64,000 nt of DNA. Origin: Bacillus sp. FJAT-18017 (lineage in GTDB: Bacteria; Bacillota; Bacilli; Bacillales; Cytobacillaceae). The notes under the pieces were generated by a model, which was not told where the DNA came from, did no database searches, and saw only the letters and a list, made by a program, of their open reading frames with translations. Numbering within the stretch: position 1 is the stretch's first letter; each line of letters opens with the position of its first letter. The stretch is taken from contig NZ_CP012602.1 of the NCBI RefSeq assembly GCF_001278805.1, forward strand, positions 3,879,501 through 3,943,500, written 5' to 3'. Both the position numbers and the translations under genes were made by a program. Positions 5,653-56,961 of the stretch are shown here, in pieces.

Positions 5653-5742
5653 TTATACCCGCCAGAATCTGACGGTTATTTTCCAGTTTTATCCACCAAG
5701 TAGCCCGTGTTAAAGGGCAGTGCAGCTTCCTCAATTTCAATT

Positions 5743-5858
5743 TGTCCTGTATCTTTAAAAATCTGTCCTGAATCCATCGAAATCTGTCCTGAAAAGCTTA
5801 AAATGTGTCCTGTATCTTTTGGGAAATGTCCTATAAACTTGGGAAATTGTCCTGAACC
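5743..5858. repeat. 21-bp periodic array 1, core TGTCCTG
   Basis: Six copies of TGTCCTG (one TGTCCTA) begin at 5743, 5764, 5785, 5806, 5827 and 5848, an exact 21-bp spacing. About 14 variable A/T-rich bases fill each unit. A frame stays open across it only because 21 is a multiple of three; there is no ribosome binding site and it is not called as a gene. Confidence 0.9.
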
Positions 5859-5905
5859 ACCCCAAACACGTTCGAAAAGACGTCACCCTACCAACTCTAC
5901 AAAAA

Positions 5906-11920: not shown

Positions 11921-12006
11921 CTCTCAAGTATTGGTGAGTGCTTTATCACCCATTGATCAATCAGCGGGTATGAAGAACCCACACCGATTGAATTTTCACT
12001 TTATCG

Positions 12007-12095
12007 CCCTGAATGAACTTTTTTATCCCTGAATAAAAATTTTATAACCCTCAATAACAATTTTATAACCCTGAACAAATAATATATCGCCCCTA
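12007..12095. repeat. 21-bp periodic array 2, core CCCTGAATAA
   Basis: CCCTGAA-like cores start at 12007, 12027, 12048, 12069 and 12090/12091, i.e. spacings of 20, 21, 21 and 21-22 bp, with A/T-rich filler such as AATTTTATAA. Confidence 0.8.
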
Positions 12096-36729: not shown

Positions 36730-39162
36730 TTACACCTCTACTGGAACAGATCGCTTCTGATAGTATTTTTCCTGAATTTCGTTTGAGTCGATTGCTTCCT
36801 GCCAAGGTTCATTGTAGCGTTCAAGCGTTTTGTCGAGACGTTCGTTAAGGGCTTTTCTAGTCGCTTCATCTGCTAGTACTTTCTTAACATGATCCAGTCC
36901 GACGCGCTCCACCCACTTCGAGGTCCGTTCAAGGTAAACCGCTGTTTCACGGTAGTACTGCATAAATGCGCCAATCAATTCGATTACTTCTTCTTTTGTT
37001 TTTACGGTATCAAGTAAGTCGCCCGCGCGCAGGTCTGTACCGCCATTGCCGCCAACATAAATTTCCCAGCCGCCATCAATGCCGACAATTCCGAAGTCCT
37101 TAATCCCAGCTTCAGCACAGTTTCGTGGACAAGCAGATACACCCATTTTCGTTTTATGAGGAGTATCGAGTCTCTCAAACTTCTTCTCAAGCTCGATGCC
37201 GAGTCCCATTGAATCCTGTGTTCCGTAGCGGCAGAATTTTGCGCCAACGCATGTCTTGACGGTACGAAGCGTTTTACCGTATGCATAACCCGAAGGCATT
37301 CCGAGTTCTTCCCATACAGCTGGCAAATCTTCTTTATTTAATCCGAACAAGCCAATCCGCTGTCCGCCAGTCAGCTTCACGAGCGGAACATCGTACTTCT
37401 CCGCCACTTCAGCAATCTTCTTCAAATCTTGTGCGGTCGTTACGCCGCCATACATCCTTGGAACAACGGAGTACGTGCCGTCTTTCTGGATATTCGCGTG
37501 CATTTTTTCGTTCACAAGGCGGGAATCGCGGTCATCTTTGTACTGCTCCTGATTAATCATTCCAAGATAATAGTTCAGGGCCGGACGGCATTTTGAGCAG
37601 CCTTCTTCATTTTCCCAACCGAGGACATTCATAACTTCCCTGACACTTGTCAAACCTTTCTCCCTGATTTCAGCGACAACTTCATCGCGGCTTAATGTGG
37701 TGCAAGCGCACATACCGGATTTTTTCGCTGTTTTGTCATACTGGTCACCAAGTGTATAGGCAAGAATTTCAGAAATAAGTCCTTTGCATCGTCCACAGGA
37801 ACGCCCGGCATTGGTGCAGCCGCCAACTTCGTCCACAGTCGTCAGGCTATTTTCCTTGATGGCGCCAACGATTGTTCCTTTTGTTACACCGTTACAGCCG
37901 CAGACAAGTTCATCGTCAGTCATTGCCGCAACATCACTTCCTGCTCCAGTACCGCCACCGCAGCAGCCTGATTCAAGGATATTTACACTCGTCATGCCGC
38001 TGACATCTTCTTTTTTCAGCATCATTCGGAACAGTCTTGAGCTGTCCTTTGTATCACCATAAAGTACAATCCCGGCAACACGGTTGTCGCGGATGACAAT
38101 TTTCTTGTAGACGCCGTCAAATTCATTGTGGACTTTGATTGCTTTTAGTCCCGGTCCCTCCTCAATCTCTCCTGCCGAAAATAGGTCAACACCTGAAACT
38201 TTCAAACCTGTTCCGACAACAGATCCTTCATATGGCTTCGTGTCTGAACGACAAATATCAGCAGCGAGAACTTTCGCCTGTTCGTAAAGCGGTGCCACTA
38301 GTCCGTACACAATCTCGCGGTGCTCGGCACACTCGCCGACGGCACGGATGGATGGAATACTTGTATGCATGAAATCATCGACAACAATCCCGCGGTTCAC
38401 GTAAATTCCTGCGTCTTTTGCCAGCTGTACATTCGGCTTGATGCCAACAGCCATAACGACAAGATCAGCATCTATCTCGGAGCCATCCTTAAACCGAAGA
38501 CCTGTAACGCGCTCATCACCAAGAATCTCGGAGGTCGCTTTTTCCATCAGGAAGTTCATGCCTTGTGCTTCAAGCTCTGCCCTTAACATGTCAGATGCCG
38601 CAGGATCAAGCTGTCTCTCCATTAGGTACGGCATGAGGTGAATCACATCGACCTCCATCCCTAGGTTCAAAAGTCCCCTTGCCGCTTCAAGTCCAAGGAG
38701 CCCACCGCCAATGACAGCAGCTTTACGGTATGTTCCCGCTGCTTTAATCATGGTTTCGGTATCCTGGATATCACGGAACCCGGTTACACCTTGCTTGTCA
38801 GCCCCCGGAATTGGCAGGATAAACGAACTGGAGCCGGTCGCGATGATAAGCTCGTCATATTCAACTGTACGCCCCTTCTCGGATACAACAGTTTTATTCT
38901 CTGGATTAATTTTAACAATCGCTTCGCCTGTAAAAAGTTCGATGTTGTTTTGTTTATACCAGTCCCGGCTGTTCATAATGATATCGTCAACAGTCGTATC
39001 ACCCTGAAGCACAGTCGACAGCTGGATACGGTTATAGTTAGGGTGTGGCTCATTGCCAAATATAGTGATGTCAAATTGTCCGGAGTTCAGTTTAAGAATC
39101 TCTTCAATTGTCCTGACACCGGCCATTCCATTTCCAATCATGACTAATTTTTTCTTGTCCAT
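36730..39162 (-). CDS. nirB: Assimilatory-type nitrite reductase [NAD(P)H], large subunit
   Basis: 810 residues reducing nitrite to ammonium. An N-terminal FAD domain (IGNGMAGVRT near residue 8, then AVIGGGLLGLEAARGL near residue 150) feeds a BFD-like 2Fe-2S domain (CGCNGVTKG near residue 426, CGRCKG near residue 460). The C-terminal sulfite/nitrite reductase region has the siroheme/4Fe-4S ligands CVGAKFC near residue 637 and CPRNC near residue 678. GGAGGT precedes the ATG. Paired, partly degenerate Fnr/Rex-like sites lie upstream. A decayed copy of its 5' end lies at 39355-39612. Confidence 0.95.
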   Translation of the reverse strand: MDKKKLVMIGNGMAGVRTIEEILKLNSGQFDITIFGNEPHPNYNRIQLSTVLQGDTTVDDIIMNSRDWYKQNNIELFTGEAIVKINPENKTVVSEKGRTVEYDELIIATGSSSFILPIPGADKQGVTGFRDIQDTETMIKAAGTYRKAAVIGGGLLGLEAARGLLNLGMEVDVIHLMPYLMERQLDPAASDMLRAELEAQGMNFLMEKATSEILGDERVTGLRFKDGSEIDADLVVMAVGIKPNVQLAKDAGIYVNRGIVVDDFMHTSIPSIRAVGECAEHREIVYGLVAPLYEQAKVLAADICRSDTKPYEGSVVGTGLKVSGVDLFSAGEIEEGPGLKAIKVHNEFDGVYKKIVIRDNRVAGIVLYGDTKDSSRLFRMMLKKEDVSGMTSVNILESGCCGGGTGAGSDVAAMTDDELVCGCNGVTKGTIVGAIKENSLTTVDEVGGCTNAGRSCGRCKGLISEILAYTLGDQYDKTAKKSGMCACTTLSRDEVVAEIREKGLTSVREVMNVLGWENEEGCSKCRPALNYYLGMINQEQYKDDRDSRLVNEKMHANIQKDGTYSVVPRMYGGVTTAQDLKKIAEVAEKYDVPLVKLTGGQRIGLFGLNKEDLPAVWEELGMPSGYAYGKTLRTVKTCVGAKFCRYGTQDSMGLGIELEKKFERLDTPHKTKMGVSACPRNCAEAGIKDFGIVGIDGGWEIYVGGNGGTDLRAGDLLDTVKTKEEVIELIGAFMQYYRETAVYLERTSKWVERVGLDHVKKVLADEATRKALNERLDKTLERYNEPWQEAIDSNEIQEKYYQKRSVPVEV

Positions 39163-39262
39163 GTTTAGGGACCTCCTATTCTTGCAAAGCGAGTTTTTCT
39201 CACAGTTGAGTTTTCATTGTTTTCTCTATGGTTATATTGTAAATGCATATTTTCATAAAATT

Positions 39263-39309
39263 TTGAGGCCTATTTTACAAATCTATGAATTTCGTAACCT
39301 ATTTCACAG
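39263..39309. promoter_or_regulatory. Degenerate Fnr/Rex-like site pair upstream of nirB
   Basis: TTGAGGCCTATTTTACAA (39263-39280) and TCGTAACCTATTTCACAG (39292-39309) keep the CTATTT(T/C)ACA right half and start exactly 29 bp apart, as do the better sites in the duplicated region at 39695. Confidence 0.5.
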
Positions 39310-39354
39310 ATATGTCAAAAGTTAATGACCCTCCCACACTTCAACAAAAAGTGT

Positions 39355-39612
39355 GATGTTGTTTTGTTTATGCCATTCCGAGTTGCAGAACAGTCGATCT
39401 GGATGCCGGTTATAAGGTAGCACTGTTTTCGTTTCTATGGGCACTTATTGAAAATCTATGGGCACATTTCCCACTTCTATGGGCACTATTCGCAGTTCTA
39501 TGGGCACTTTGTACATTCCTAAGGACACATATTGAAAATCCATGAGTAACTGACACCGGCCCTTCCACTTCCGAGCATGACTATTTTTTATTCATGTTTA
39601 GGGACCTCCTAT
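39355..39612 (-). pseudogene. Relic of a second nirB 5' end, split by a 21-bp array
   Basis: The minus strand from 39612 repeats the nirB ribosome binding site (GAATAGGAGGTCCCTAAAC then ATG) and its first codons with one frameshift: MNKK, then VMLGSGRAGV, matching MDKKKLVMIGNGMAGV. After the array at 39435-39545 the homology resumes: NSEWHKQNNITLF matches NSRDWYKQNNIELF (about residue 70 of NirB), with YNR-like sequence just before. The upstream region to about 39745 also matches the nirB promoter. So promoter and about 75 codons were duplicated, then decayed. Confidence 0.88.
39435..39545. repeat. 21-bp periodic array 3, core CTATGGGCAC
   Basis: Cores begin at 39435, 39456, 39477, 39498, 39519 and 39540, exactly 21 bp apart. 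The first four are CTATGGGCAC; the fifth is CTAAGGACAC and the last CCATGAG. Filler of 11 bases varies, though units 1 and 5 share ATTGAAAAT. It lies inside the nirB relic. Confidence 0.93.
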
Positions 39613-39694
39613 TCCTGGATACCAGGTTTTTAAAGCCGCTAAGTTTAAATTGTTTTCCTTATGTTTATATTGTAATTTCATGTTAACAATAAGT

Positions 39695-39741
39695 TTGTGA
39701 CTTATTTCACAAATCAATAAAGTTTGTTAAACTTTTCACAA
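39695..39741. promoter_or_regulatory. Paired Fnr/Rex-type operators
   Basis: TTGTGACTTATTTCACAA (39695-39712) is a perfect TTGTGA-N6-TCACAA palindrome; TTGTTAAACTTTTCACAA (39724-39741) is one base off. They start 29 bp apart. Fnr (TGTGA-N6-TCACA) and Rex (TTGTGAA-N4-TTCACAA) both fit this pattern. They are upstream of the nirB relic and about 110 bp upstream of the histidine kinase. Confidence 0.7.
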
Positions 39742-39851
39742 AAAAGGTTTAGTTTTAATCTAAATCTCAACTAAAAAGTCTAATCGACAAACAGTTACTT
39801 GTTTCTGTAATATAGAGAAAGCAGTATACCTTTGTTAAGGAGTGAAAGGCC

Positions 39852-41324
39852 ATGTCCGAATGTAATCCGCTCTTCGGCAAACATTTAGATACTAATGAAT
39901 ACGATCCCGATAAATTATTAGATTTATTTCTTAATAGTACAGTTGACGGTGTTGCCATAGTGGACATGGAAGGCCGCTTCTTGCGAGTAAATCCTATGTA
40001 TTCATCAATCTTTGGGTACAGTCAGGATGAATTATTGGGGCGTAAATATGAGGACTTCAGTAATTTGGGAACGGTTAGAGACTTTGTTGAACAGGTTAAA
40101 GCCGGGGATACCTTCTCAAACTTGAACCTCCAATATTATCATAAAGACGGAAAAGTCCTTGATATAGCAGTCTCTTATTCTCCCTTTCGAAACACTGCGG
40201 GAGAGATCATTGCAATGATTGGTATTTTCCGGGATATAACGGAGCAAAAGAATTTGGAAAGGGAATTGAAGAAGAGCCAGGAGCTTTACAAGATTATTAC
40301 AGAAAATACGACTGATTTAATTCATATTGTTTCCAATACAAAAGACAAGACGATCATTTACGCGTCACCCTCTCTTGAGAAGGTATTTGGGCTGCCTCCT
40401 TCAACTATCATTGGAAGAAGCCTATCAGAATTTATCTCTGAAGAACAATCAGAAATGTTAATAAGGAAAATAAATCAGTGGAAAATTACTGGAGAGCCCA
40501 TCCTTTTTGTTAGGGAAATTATATCGCCTGAAGGTGAACAACTTTACTTTGAATATAATATCTCACCTATTACTAATGAGTGGGGTGAGATTGTTTCGTA
40601 CGTGTCCGTTGCACGTAATATTACGGAACGTATTAAAAATGAATCTGCCATCCGCAATCTGGACCGGCTGTCGATCATTGGCCAACTGGCAGCGGGAGTA
40701 GCCCATGAAATCAGGAATCCACTTACCTCGCTGAAAGGTTTTTCAAAACTGCTGTCCAACAACACAGACATCGAGAAACAGCGTCAATATCTCGACATCA
40801 TCCGAGGCGAACTTGACCGGATTGATATGATTGTCAATGAATTCATGTCACTGGCTAAACCGCAGGCTGTGCAATACGTTAAGGCAGGAATCACATCAAT
40901 AATACAAAGTACGATAAATATTCTGCAGCCGCAGGCTGTTCTTCACAATGTCGAGATTAAAACAAAATTTCCTTCCAGGGATATTGAACTTCTTTGCAGC
41001 CCGAACCAGCTTAAGCAGGTTTTTGTTAATTTCCTAAAAAATGCAATAGAGGCAATACCCGACGGAGGCAATGTTTATATAGAGGTAGAGCATCTAAAAC
41101 CCTCGTTGGTCCAAATCACATTCACTGATGAAGGGATAGGGATTGCTCCTGAGATTGTTGGCTATCTTGGTACACCATTTTACACAACAAAAGATAAAGG
41201 AATTGGGCTCGGTCTGACAGTAAGCAATAAAATTATCCAGGAACACAATGGAAAAATGAGTATTGAAAGCCAGGCTGGCATCGGGACAACCATTAGTATA
41301 GAACTGGAATGTCTGGCAACATAA
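39852..41324 (+). CDS. PAS-domain sensor histidine kinase, KinA/KinE-like
   Basis: 490 residues without membrane spans, so a cytosolic sensor. Two PAS domains (about 25-140, with GVAIVDMEGRFLRVNPMYSSIFGYSQDELLG in parts, and 145-265) precede a HisKA domain with phospho-acceptor His in HEIRNPLTSLKGF near residue 284. The HATPase_c domain has NFLKNAIEAIP (N box), TDEGIGIAPE (G1) and KGIGLGLTVSN (G2). The layout matches the sporulation phosphorelay kinases of bacilli that feed Spo0F. No response regulator is adjacent. GGAGTG precedes the ATG. Confidence 0.9.
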   Translation: MSECNPLFGKHLDTNEYDPDKLLDLFLNSTVDGVAIVDMEGRFLRVNPMYSSIFGYSQDELLGRKYEDFSNLGTVRDFVEQVKAGDTFSNLNLQYYHKDGKVLDIAVSYSPFRNTAGEIIAMIGIFRDITEQKNLERELKKSQELYKIITENTTDLIHIVSNTKDKTIIYASPSLEKVFGLPPSTIIGRSLSEFISEEQSEMLIRKINQWKITGEPILFVREIISPEGEQLYFEYNISPITNEWGEIVSYVSVARNITERIKNESAIRNLDRLSIIGQLAAGVAHEIRNPLTSLKGFSKLLSNNTDIEKQRQYLDIIRGELDRIDMIVNEFMSLAKPQAVQYVKAGITSIIQSTINILQPQAVLHNVEIKTKFPSRDIELLCSPNQLKQVFVNFLKNAIEAIPDGGNVYIEVEHLKPSLVQITFTDEGIGIAPEIVGYLGTPFYTTKDKGIGLGLTVSNKIIQEHNGKMSIESQAGIGTTISIELECLAT

Positions 41325-41326
41325 AT

Positions 41327-41352
41327 TTGGCGCATGGAAAACCATGCGCCAA
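41327..41352 (+). terminator. Terminator after the histidine kinase
   Basis: TTGGCGCATGG / CCATGCGCCAA with an AAAA loop, then TTAATTTT. Just beyond it, TTTTAGAAATCAGTTTTAA-type sequence is repeated twice with a 19-bp step (about 41357-41394). Nothing else was recognised before 41615. Confidence 0.85.
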
Positions 41353-41614
41353 TTAATTTTAGAAATCAGTTTTAATTTTAGAAATCAGTTAATGAGGCAG
41401 TCTTTATTCAACAATCCTCAGCTATTGAAATAAGAAAAGCATATTACCGGCAGCCCAATGACATTTAAATTGACAGCTTGACACTACACTGTAATGGTCA
41501 AAACTTATTGTCCATTATATATGTCGTTTATTAATAAAGGCCCGAATGCGGACCACTTCAGAAAAATAATCCCCTCTTTTTGGGGGACTAAGGACACATA
41601 AACTGGAACATAAA

Positions 41615-56584: not shown

Positions 56585-56775
56585 CGCTCTCGAGCCCCTC
56601 TATTAACGACTGTACACTCTATTTTTTTACATACAGGGTCGCCAATAACCTTTATTGACGACCGTGTGCTCAATTTTTTATCCGCAGGGTCGTCAACAAC
56701 CTGTATTGACGACCGCGTACTCCGTTTTTTATCTGCAGGGTCATCAAGAACTCTATTGAAGACTATGCACTCCAT
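56585..56775. repeat. 51-bp tandem repeats containing hairpins
   Basis: About 3.5 units of 51-52 bp start near 56587. Each holds an inverted pair of the form GGTCGTCAA ... TTGACGACC with a loop of about 8 bases, followed by an A/T spacer ending TTTTTTAT. On the minus strand a 75-codon frame (56548-56775) crosses it with an AAGGTGGG-like site 6 nt before an ATG, and its product is a 17-residue repeat (DDPADKKRSTRSSI). The frame may be a by-product of the 51-bp period; I do not call it a gene. Confidence 0.75.
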
Positions 56776-56961
56776 TTTTCACCCACCTTTACGAACAACA
56801 CCATTTTTCTTATAACGTTCTATTCTTTTTGGTTAAGCAGTAAGGCCGGGCCTTACATAGGAATTACGGCCTATTTTTTCATTTCAAAGACTTTGAATTG
56901 GAAAAATATTCATATAACAGGTATAAATGAAATGGTATTTACTATCGGGATGGTGATATTT

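What the first reader, a model, noticed from the sequence alone, without database searches (positions are those of the whole stretch)
39435..39545. 21-bp periodic array inside a decayed nirB copy
Six units with core CTATGGGCAC repeat at an exact 21-bp step, while 11 bases of each unit vary. The array occupies the place of about 26 codons of the duplicated nirB 5' end, with nirB homology on both sides (VMLGSGRAGV side and NSEWHKQNNITLF side). So it arose, or was inserted, after the gene copy died. Conserved core plus variable filler at two helical turns resembles an ordered protein-binding array rather than slippage of one unit. Two other arrays in the window (5743 and 12007) have the same period but different cores, suggesting a class of elements.
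Basis: partly seen in the sequence, partly recalled or inferred. Interest (0 to 1): 0.82.

Follow-up and report, generated by a model that had tools for sequence, protein, structure and literature searches.

The report
Fixed-size non-coding repeats in Bacillus
A short run of 21-letter DNA repeats sits in the remains of a dead gene copy in a Bacillus relative; [quoted passage not shown]

Summary
The array is real: four exact CTATGGGCAC cores and two degenerate ones at a 21-bp step (39435-39545), inside a decayed copy of the nirB 5' end. It is not unique. The core forms arrays at 8 places in this genome and 5 in sister G007. Sampled intergenic DNA here shows an excess of 20-21-bp steps with many other cores, as do 4 of 14 sampled genomes of the family. 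This is the published "constant size, variable sequence" repeat class of Bacillus (20-21 and 52 nt; PMC8161180): a new member of a known kind, function open. Added here: in 9 arrays of this family the same unit columns stay conserved and the same ones vary; yet at two loci compared between sisters the core drifts as fast as filler and flank (14/120, 13/118, 45/504). One intergenic slot carries arrays of different cores, on opposite strands, in related species. Heptad coding is not supported; predicted bending does not single out this array. A protein binding every two turns is my likeliest cause of the fixed step, but no binder is shown and this copy looks close to neutral.

The parts
39435..39545 (+). 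21-bp array, T-rich strand on +: family consensus TTCTATGGGCACNTTNNNNNN; four exact cores, one with 2 and one with 4 mismatches
39346..39379 (-). left part of the decayed nirB copy (matches 38932-38965, 88% over 34 bp; weaker similarity by eye to about 39415)
   Evidence: shared with G007
39550..39721 (-). right part of the decayed nirB copy: start codon region and upstream DNA (matches 39113-39289, 76.8% over 177 columns)
39852..41324 (+). PAS sensor histidine kinase (490 aa) on the other side of the array; name from looking at the translation, no family search was run; used as anchor for the genus comparison
5739..5860 (-). second 21-bp array of the class, core TTCAGGACA (T-rich strand on -); a like core recurs at L161 and in G005 (L195)
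12000..12090 (-). third 21-bp array of the class, core TTCAGGGTTATAAAA (T-rich strand on -)

Best explanation
It is a non-coding minisatellite of the published 20-21-nt 'constant size, variable sequence' class of Bacillus. Shown: it is a dispersed family with one core at 8 places in the genome, unit number differs between sister species by whole units, other families with other cores share the same two-turn step, and it lies in a gene relic. Inferred: arrays start as a tandem duplication of about 21 bp and grow by whole units; the step is held at two helical turns because something reads the double helix from one side at every second turn, most likely a DNA-binding protein that tolerates many core words and sits on the conserved core, while the bases between cores drift. 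At the nirB relic the array now drifts at about the neutral rate, so this copy is probably a by-product and not a regulator of nirB or the kinase.
For: Class: 20-21 step excess and the text of PMC8161180. In the clusters of four or more copies outside the genus 24 of 24 spacings are 19-22 or 41-43 bp, so the step is two turns and not a codon multiple. Conserved columns cluster (Fisher over 22 tested of 26 arrays p=4.8e-5) and coincide across 9 arrays of this family (0 of 20,000 permutations). At the L063 locus the core CTCTTGATAA persists in three species (7, 4 and 6 hits) while the G005 fillers mostly differ. Unit numbers differ between sisters at shared loci. One array has cores 11 and 21 apart (L066), which keeps them on one face.
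Against: No binder is identified. Between G000 and G007 the core differs at 14 of 120 sites, filler at 13 of 118, flank at 45 of 504 at the two well-aligned loci: no sign of recent constraint on the core. In the clustering test only 4 of 22 arrays are singly below 0.05, and arrays of one family are not independent. The listed arrays show no promoter preference. Lag 18 also exceeds shuffles (4 against 0.2), and arrays of 52, 32 and 37 bp occur in the same genome; 37 is not a whole number of turns.
Confidence: 0.4

Rival explanations
1. A mutational product only: a copying or repair process (replication slippage or template switching) makes 20-21-bp tandem copies, and nothing selects them. The core is what the process needs for realignment, or what had not yet decayed.
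For: Core, filler and flank diverge equally between sisters at two loci. Adjacent copies at least 90% alike in the own genome's sampled intergenic DNA, for lengths from 16 up, are 20-21 (6 rows), 51-53 (19 rows), 32-33 and 64-65 (9 rows, one locus), 40-42 (2 rows, inside 20-21 arrays) and one of 19, so the size is fixed already at young age. By eye G006 has a fresh two-copy 21-bp duplication in the L035 slot (L211). Where G007 lacks the L161 and L034 arrays it has about 40 and 65 bp of other sequence.
Against: Conserved columns cluster and coincide across arrays, which plain duplication plus decay does not give; I know of no slippage process that fixes 20-21 and 52 bp.
Confidence: 0.35
2. The arrays are transcribed and act as small RNAs or RNA sponges, as proposed by Subirana and Messeguer.
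For: 52-nt repeats of B. coagulans are seen in RNA-seq (PMC8625621, passages).
Against: Here arrays lie on either strand relative to neighbours (11 A-rich sense, 6 T-rich sense among 17 tandem contexts). No Rfam family at 38000-41000. The L031 array and its G004 counterpart follow what looks like a terminator hairpin (by eye). Transcription in this strain was not testable.
Confidence: 0.08
3. Coding heptad repeats: 21 bp = 7 codons of a once expressed protein.
For: The step is a codon multiple and some frames through the array are open.
Against: No ORF of 60 aa or more covers the array; families with 20-bp steps and spacings of 19, 20 and 22 break any frame; the same core lies in 8 different places, each between other genes.
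Confidence: 0.02
4. Intrinsic DNA curvature: any unit repeated in phase with the helix bends, so size matters and sequence does not.
For: The step is two turns. Over 22 arrays predicted curvature is above that of dinucleotide shuffles (mean z 0.63, SE 0.21), and some arrays (G001 L132, L109, L138, C) are strongly curved.
Against: Against arrays with permuted unit columns, which keep the period, the mean z is 0.09 (SE 0.21), so the sequences themselves are not tuned for bending; the window array is straighter (3.3 deg per turn) than its permuted (6.7) or shuffled (4.9) versions (wedge values recalled from memory).
Confidence: 0.07

Closest known systems
20-21-nt non-coding tandem repeats of Bacillus (Subirana and Messeguer 2021, PMC8161180, which cites their J. 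Bacteriol. 2020 paper for the class)
   Same: Fixed 20-21 size, non-coding, several families per genome with different sequence, families limited to close species, short conserved word in all repeats, no known function
   Different: Nothing categorical. This array lies in a gene relic and is short. Slot re-use with different cores and a core-against-filler rate comparison are not described in parts 1-4 of 5 that I read
52-nt non-coding tandem repeats of Bacillus (same authors)
   Same: Same genomes, fixed size, variable sequence; a 51/52-bp array lies in this window at 56634-56779
   Different: Unit length about five turns, with inverted pieces inside the unit
STRR/LTRR repeats of cyanobacteria (recalled, not looked up)
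   Same: Dispersed short intergenic tandem arrays without known function
   Different: 7-bp and 37-bp units, other phylum
Iterons, ParR-type centromere arrays and operator arrays (recalled)
   Same: Direct repeats at whole helical turns with a conserved core
   Different: Those sit at single loci next to their binder's gene; here 20 arrays are listed in the sampled part of one genome, with many cores and no promoter preference
CRISPR arrays (features recalled)
   Same: Conserved part plus variable part at constant step
   Different: 10-15-bp repeat, fillers T-rich and alike within a locus, dispersed at many loci; cas genes were not searched

Membership tests
Bacillus 20-21-nt constant-size tandem repeats | repeat length 20-21 nt, at least four repeats, lengths regular | tested here: met
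   Steps of 21 bp, four exact cores plus two decayed; the authors' program SATFIND was not run
Bacillus 20-21-nt constant-size tandem repeats | not protein coding | tested here: met
   No ORF of 60 aa or more over 39435-39545; 20-bp families in the same genome
Bacillus 20-21-nt constant-size tandem repeats | several families of one size and different sequence in one genome | tested here: met
Bacillus 20-21-nt constant-size tandem repeats | family limited to one or very close species | tested here: met
   CTATGGGCAC pairs at 21 bp with up to 1 mismatch in 2 of 61 genomes, own and G007; exact scan of genome contigs gives 4 stretches, 2 of them Bacillus sp. EB01, 1 Paenibacillus and 1 Nesterenkonia, the last two with irregular spacing
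Bacillus 20-21-nt constant-size tandem repeats | short word conserved in all repeats | tested here: met
Operator or iteron array | a cognate protein binds the core | not testable with these tools
   no binding data
Operator or iteron array | placed in promoters or beside the binder's gene | tested here: not met
   29 hand-listed arrays: 7 convergent, 17 tandem, 5 divergent, so no promoter preference as a class; this array itself lies between divergent genes; relation to a binder's gene not tested
CRISPR array | repeats of about 24-37 bp with unrelated spacers | tested here: not met
   repeat 10-15 bp, 21-bp step, within-locus fillers related
CRISPR array | cas genes | not tested
   no search run
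Coding heptad repeat | open reading frame through the array with period in codons | tested here: not met
   one or more frames are open over the short array itself, but within no ORF of 60 aa

The most novel reading that the evidence does not exclude
What is inherited at these intergenic slots is the two-turn step and not the sequence: the genome has a dedicated process that writes or maintains arrays of 20-21 bp around whatever word is present, so that sister species carry arrays of different cores, even on opposite strands, in the same slot (L035 slot: G000/G007 against G005; L031 slot: G000 against G004).
Probability: 0.1. Interest if true: 0.75.

Novelty: new member of a known kind. Interest (0 to 1): 0.36.

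Why it matters
The class is common in some Bacillus relatives, scarce in others, and unexplained. The finding gives a testable contrast: conserved columns within arrays argue for a reader of the core, equal core and filler drift between sisters argues against it. Named orthologous slots with different cores make the question of selection for size against copying bias directly testable in soil bacteria.

Tried and rejected
Intrinsic curvature as the cause of the fixed step: arrays bend somewhat more than shuffles but not more than arrays with permuted columns, and the window array bends less. Heptad coding: not supported. Rfam RNA family: none at 38000-41000. Presence of the family on plasmids, phages or viral contigs: no match for the 191-bp L032 query in plasmids or phages and none for the exact two-core pattern in viral contigs. 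A guide-target reading (T-rich PAM-like bases before a conserved word) and a stop-codon reading of the cores were considered and dropped without a test: AT-rich words give both often by chance. Reach beyond the family: 20 stretches from 20 genomes of other families of the order (299 kb) gave no regular 20-22-bp array, but the sample is small.

Rows dropped and results against: the L036 locus was misaligned by repeat units and L037 could not be aligned; with all four loci the script gives core 39/209, filler 53/206 (p=0.098), flank 146/919. In one search, 4 of 26 arrays had too few equal-length units. In the looser scan (three or more copies) spacings other than 20-22 appear in all sets, near what shuffles give (family: 13 clusters, 2.6 per shuffle). 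In one search two of the seven lag-21 hits (L042, L073) are weak (0.64), and lag 18 had 4 hits against 0.2. One search leaves out three weak arrays printed (L155, L063:12276, L073). One of the 14 family genomes gave only 187 bases. One search counted masked letters as repeats; one search mended that. Intergenic DNA was defined by my own ORF rule (100 aa) and not by annotation. Against the report first drafted, the odds of the curvature rival were raised from 0.05 to 0.07 because of the shuffle comparison.

Full report
What is there. The window (G000:C1:3879501-3943500 of a 5.27-Mb one-contig genome) holds at 39435-39545 four exact copies of CTATGGGCAC and two decayed ones at a 21-bp step. The array lies between the start of nirB (36730-39162, minus strand) and a PAS histidine kinase (39852-41324, plus strand; names by look, no family search). 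It interrupts a decayed copy of the nirB 5' end: 39550-39721 matches 39113-39289 at 76.8% over 177 columns and 39346-39379 matches 38932-38965 at 88% over 34 bp.

It is a dispersed family. The two-core pattern with up to 3 mismatches has 41 matches at 8 places in the own genome, against 1 for the control pattern. Arrays have 5 to 7 units (one place holds two such arrays), with steps of 21 and a few of 19 or 20. Among 61 genomes (own plus 60 relatives) the own genome and sister G007 alone have it at up to one mismatch. Of the five G007 places, those at the nirB relic, L035 and L036 are orthologous by their flanks and L037 probably so; the fifth is L054. Unit number differs at nirB, L036 and, by alignment, L035. 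The relic with array is shared by G007; the roughly 800 bp upstream of the orthologous kinase in G005 show neither relic nor array.

It is one family of a larger class. In 721 kb of the own genome (143 kb intergenic by my ORF rule) a lag scan found 7 hits at lag 21 (two weak) and 6 at lag 20 (two of them in one array), against 0.0 and 0.2 in shuffles; lags 22 and 24-31 gave none, lag 23 one, lag 18 four (0.2 in shuffles). A core-based scan of 1.12 Mb (225 kb intergenic) found 15 clusters of four or more copies and none in one shuffle; 10 of the 15 have steps of 20-21 (one of these also 11 and 32), the other five 25/27, 32/33 or irregular. In stretches of 14 other genomes of the family (655 kb, one genome with 187 bases only) six clusters in 4 genomes gave 24 spacings, all 19-22 or 41-43. 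In 20 genomes of other families of the order (299 kb) no regular array of this step appeared. Cores differ widely, for example TTTATGAACAC, TTTATCAAGAG, TTCAGGACA, AATTCGGCGATTT, TTTATTATCC, TTTACCCGC and TCTATTTGCA.

Published class. Subirana and Messeguer described in 176 Bacillus genomes non-coding tandem repeats of constant size, either 20-21 or 52 nt, with variable sequence, several families per genome, and short characteristic words; they note that 20-21 is two helical turns and suggest a polymerising protein or small RNAs (PMC8161180, parts 1 to 4 of 5 read). Their 2019 survey was seen in part 1 of 5 (PMC6749651), the transcription paper in passages (PMC8625621); the 2020 J. Bacteriol. 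paper is not held and was not read. The array meets the features of this class that I tested. The genome also has the 52-nt class, including a 51/52-bp array at 56634-56779 in the window.

Is the core held? Within arrays, yes: conserved columns cluster (22 of 26 arrays tested, Fisher p=4.8e-5; singly below 0.05 in 4 of 22: the window array, L149, L132 and L063; arrays of one family are not independent). Across 9 arrays of this family (8 places, 41 units) the mean pairwise difference is 0.07 in columns 1-10 and 0.33 in the rest; columns 12-13 are near-invariant, 20-21 mostly T, and 11, 14 and 16-19 vary most; none of 20,000 permutations reached the observed concordance. At the L063 locus the core CTCTTGATAA persists in G000, G007 and G005 while the G005 fillers mostly differ. 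Between sisters, no: at the two loci that align well, core differs at 14 of 120 sites, filler at 13 of 118 and flank at 45 of 504. The sample is small, and two of four loci could not be used. I read this as a core that mattered for array making or upkeep, with this copy now near neutral.

Slots. Downstream of the gene next to L035, G000 and G007 carry this family, G005 carries a TTTATCAAGAC array on the other strand, G006 by eye a two-copy 21-bp duplication, and the scan found none in G001-G004. At the L031 locus G004 has a GGTTCATAC array with spacings 42 and 21, twice, each after what looks like the same terminator; G001 has another array (CCCGGAATT) there and G005 showed none, but the sequence beyond looks different in these two. 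At L034 and L161 G007 lacks the array and has other sequence in its place. These are few cases found by following a handful of loci, so re-use of slots is suggestive and not proven.

What it is not. Its bending is not special: arrays exceed shuffles a little (mean z 0.63) but not column-permuted arrays (0.09), and this array lies below both. It is not coding as far as ORFs tell, not an Rfam family, not seen on plasmids, phages or viral contigs by the searches done, and the class is not tied to promoters.

Verdict. New member of a known, unexplained kind.

Noticed in passing
window 56634-56779: 51/52-bp tandem array (2.9 copies) of the published 52-nt class, with inverted pieces inside the unit (GTCGTCAA...TTGACGAC by eye); the same sequence type is seen by eye at several sampled places of the genome (L045, L046, L065, L072, L076, L166).
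   Followed up: partly
L035 slot in G005 (L210) and G006 (L211): Same intergenic slot carries a different-core 21-bp array on the other strand in G005 and, by eye, a fresh two-copy 21-bp duplication in G006.
   Followed up: partly
L116:368-600, L065:11864-11950, L063:19736-19822: Arrays with alternating 25/27-bp spacing of ATTAATC words, which make a 52-bp unit with an inverted repeat.
   Followed up: no
L159:1-410: Long array of about 12 near-identical 32-bp units (three helical turns) outside the two published sizes; my sample begins inside it, so its extent is unknown.
   Followed up: no
L076:2020-2130 and L079:16926-17036: Two dispersed 37-bp arrays with related sequence; 37 bp is not a whole number of turns.
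   Followed up: no
window 41352-41390: Perfect 19-bp two-copy duplication about 30 bp after the kinase stop codon.
   Followed up: no
own genome, the 20 G000 arrays: By hand count, the A-rich strand of the arrays runs with replication in 15 of 20 cases, against it in 4, and one near the terminus is unclear (GC skew flips near 0.19 and 2.5 Mb); families are not independent.
   Followed up: no
L064:3919-4008 with L220 and L221: The 20-bp TTTATGAACAC array is flanked on both sides by conserved sequence shared by three loci in two species, so array and flanks may have spread together.
   Followed up: partly
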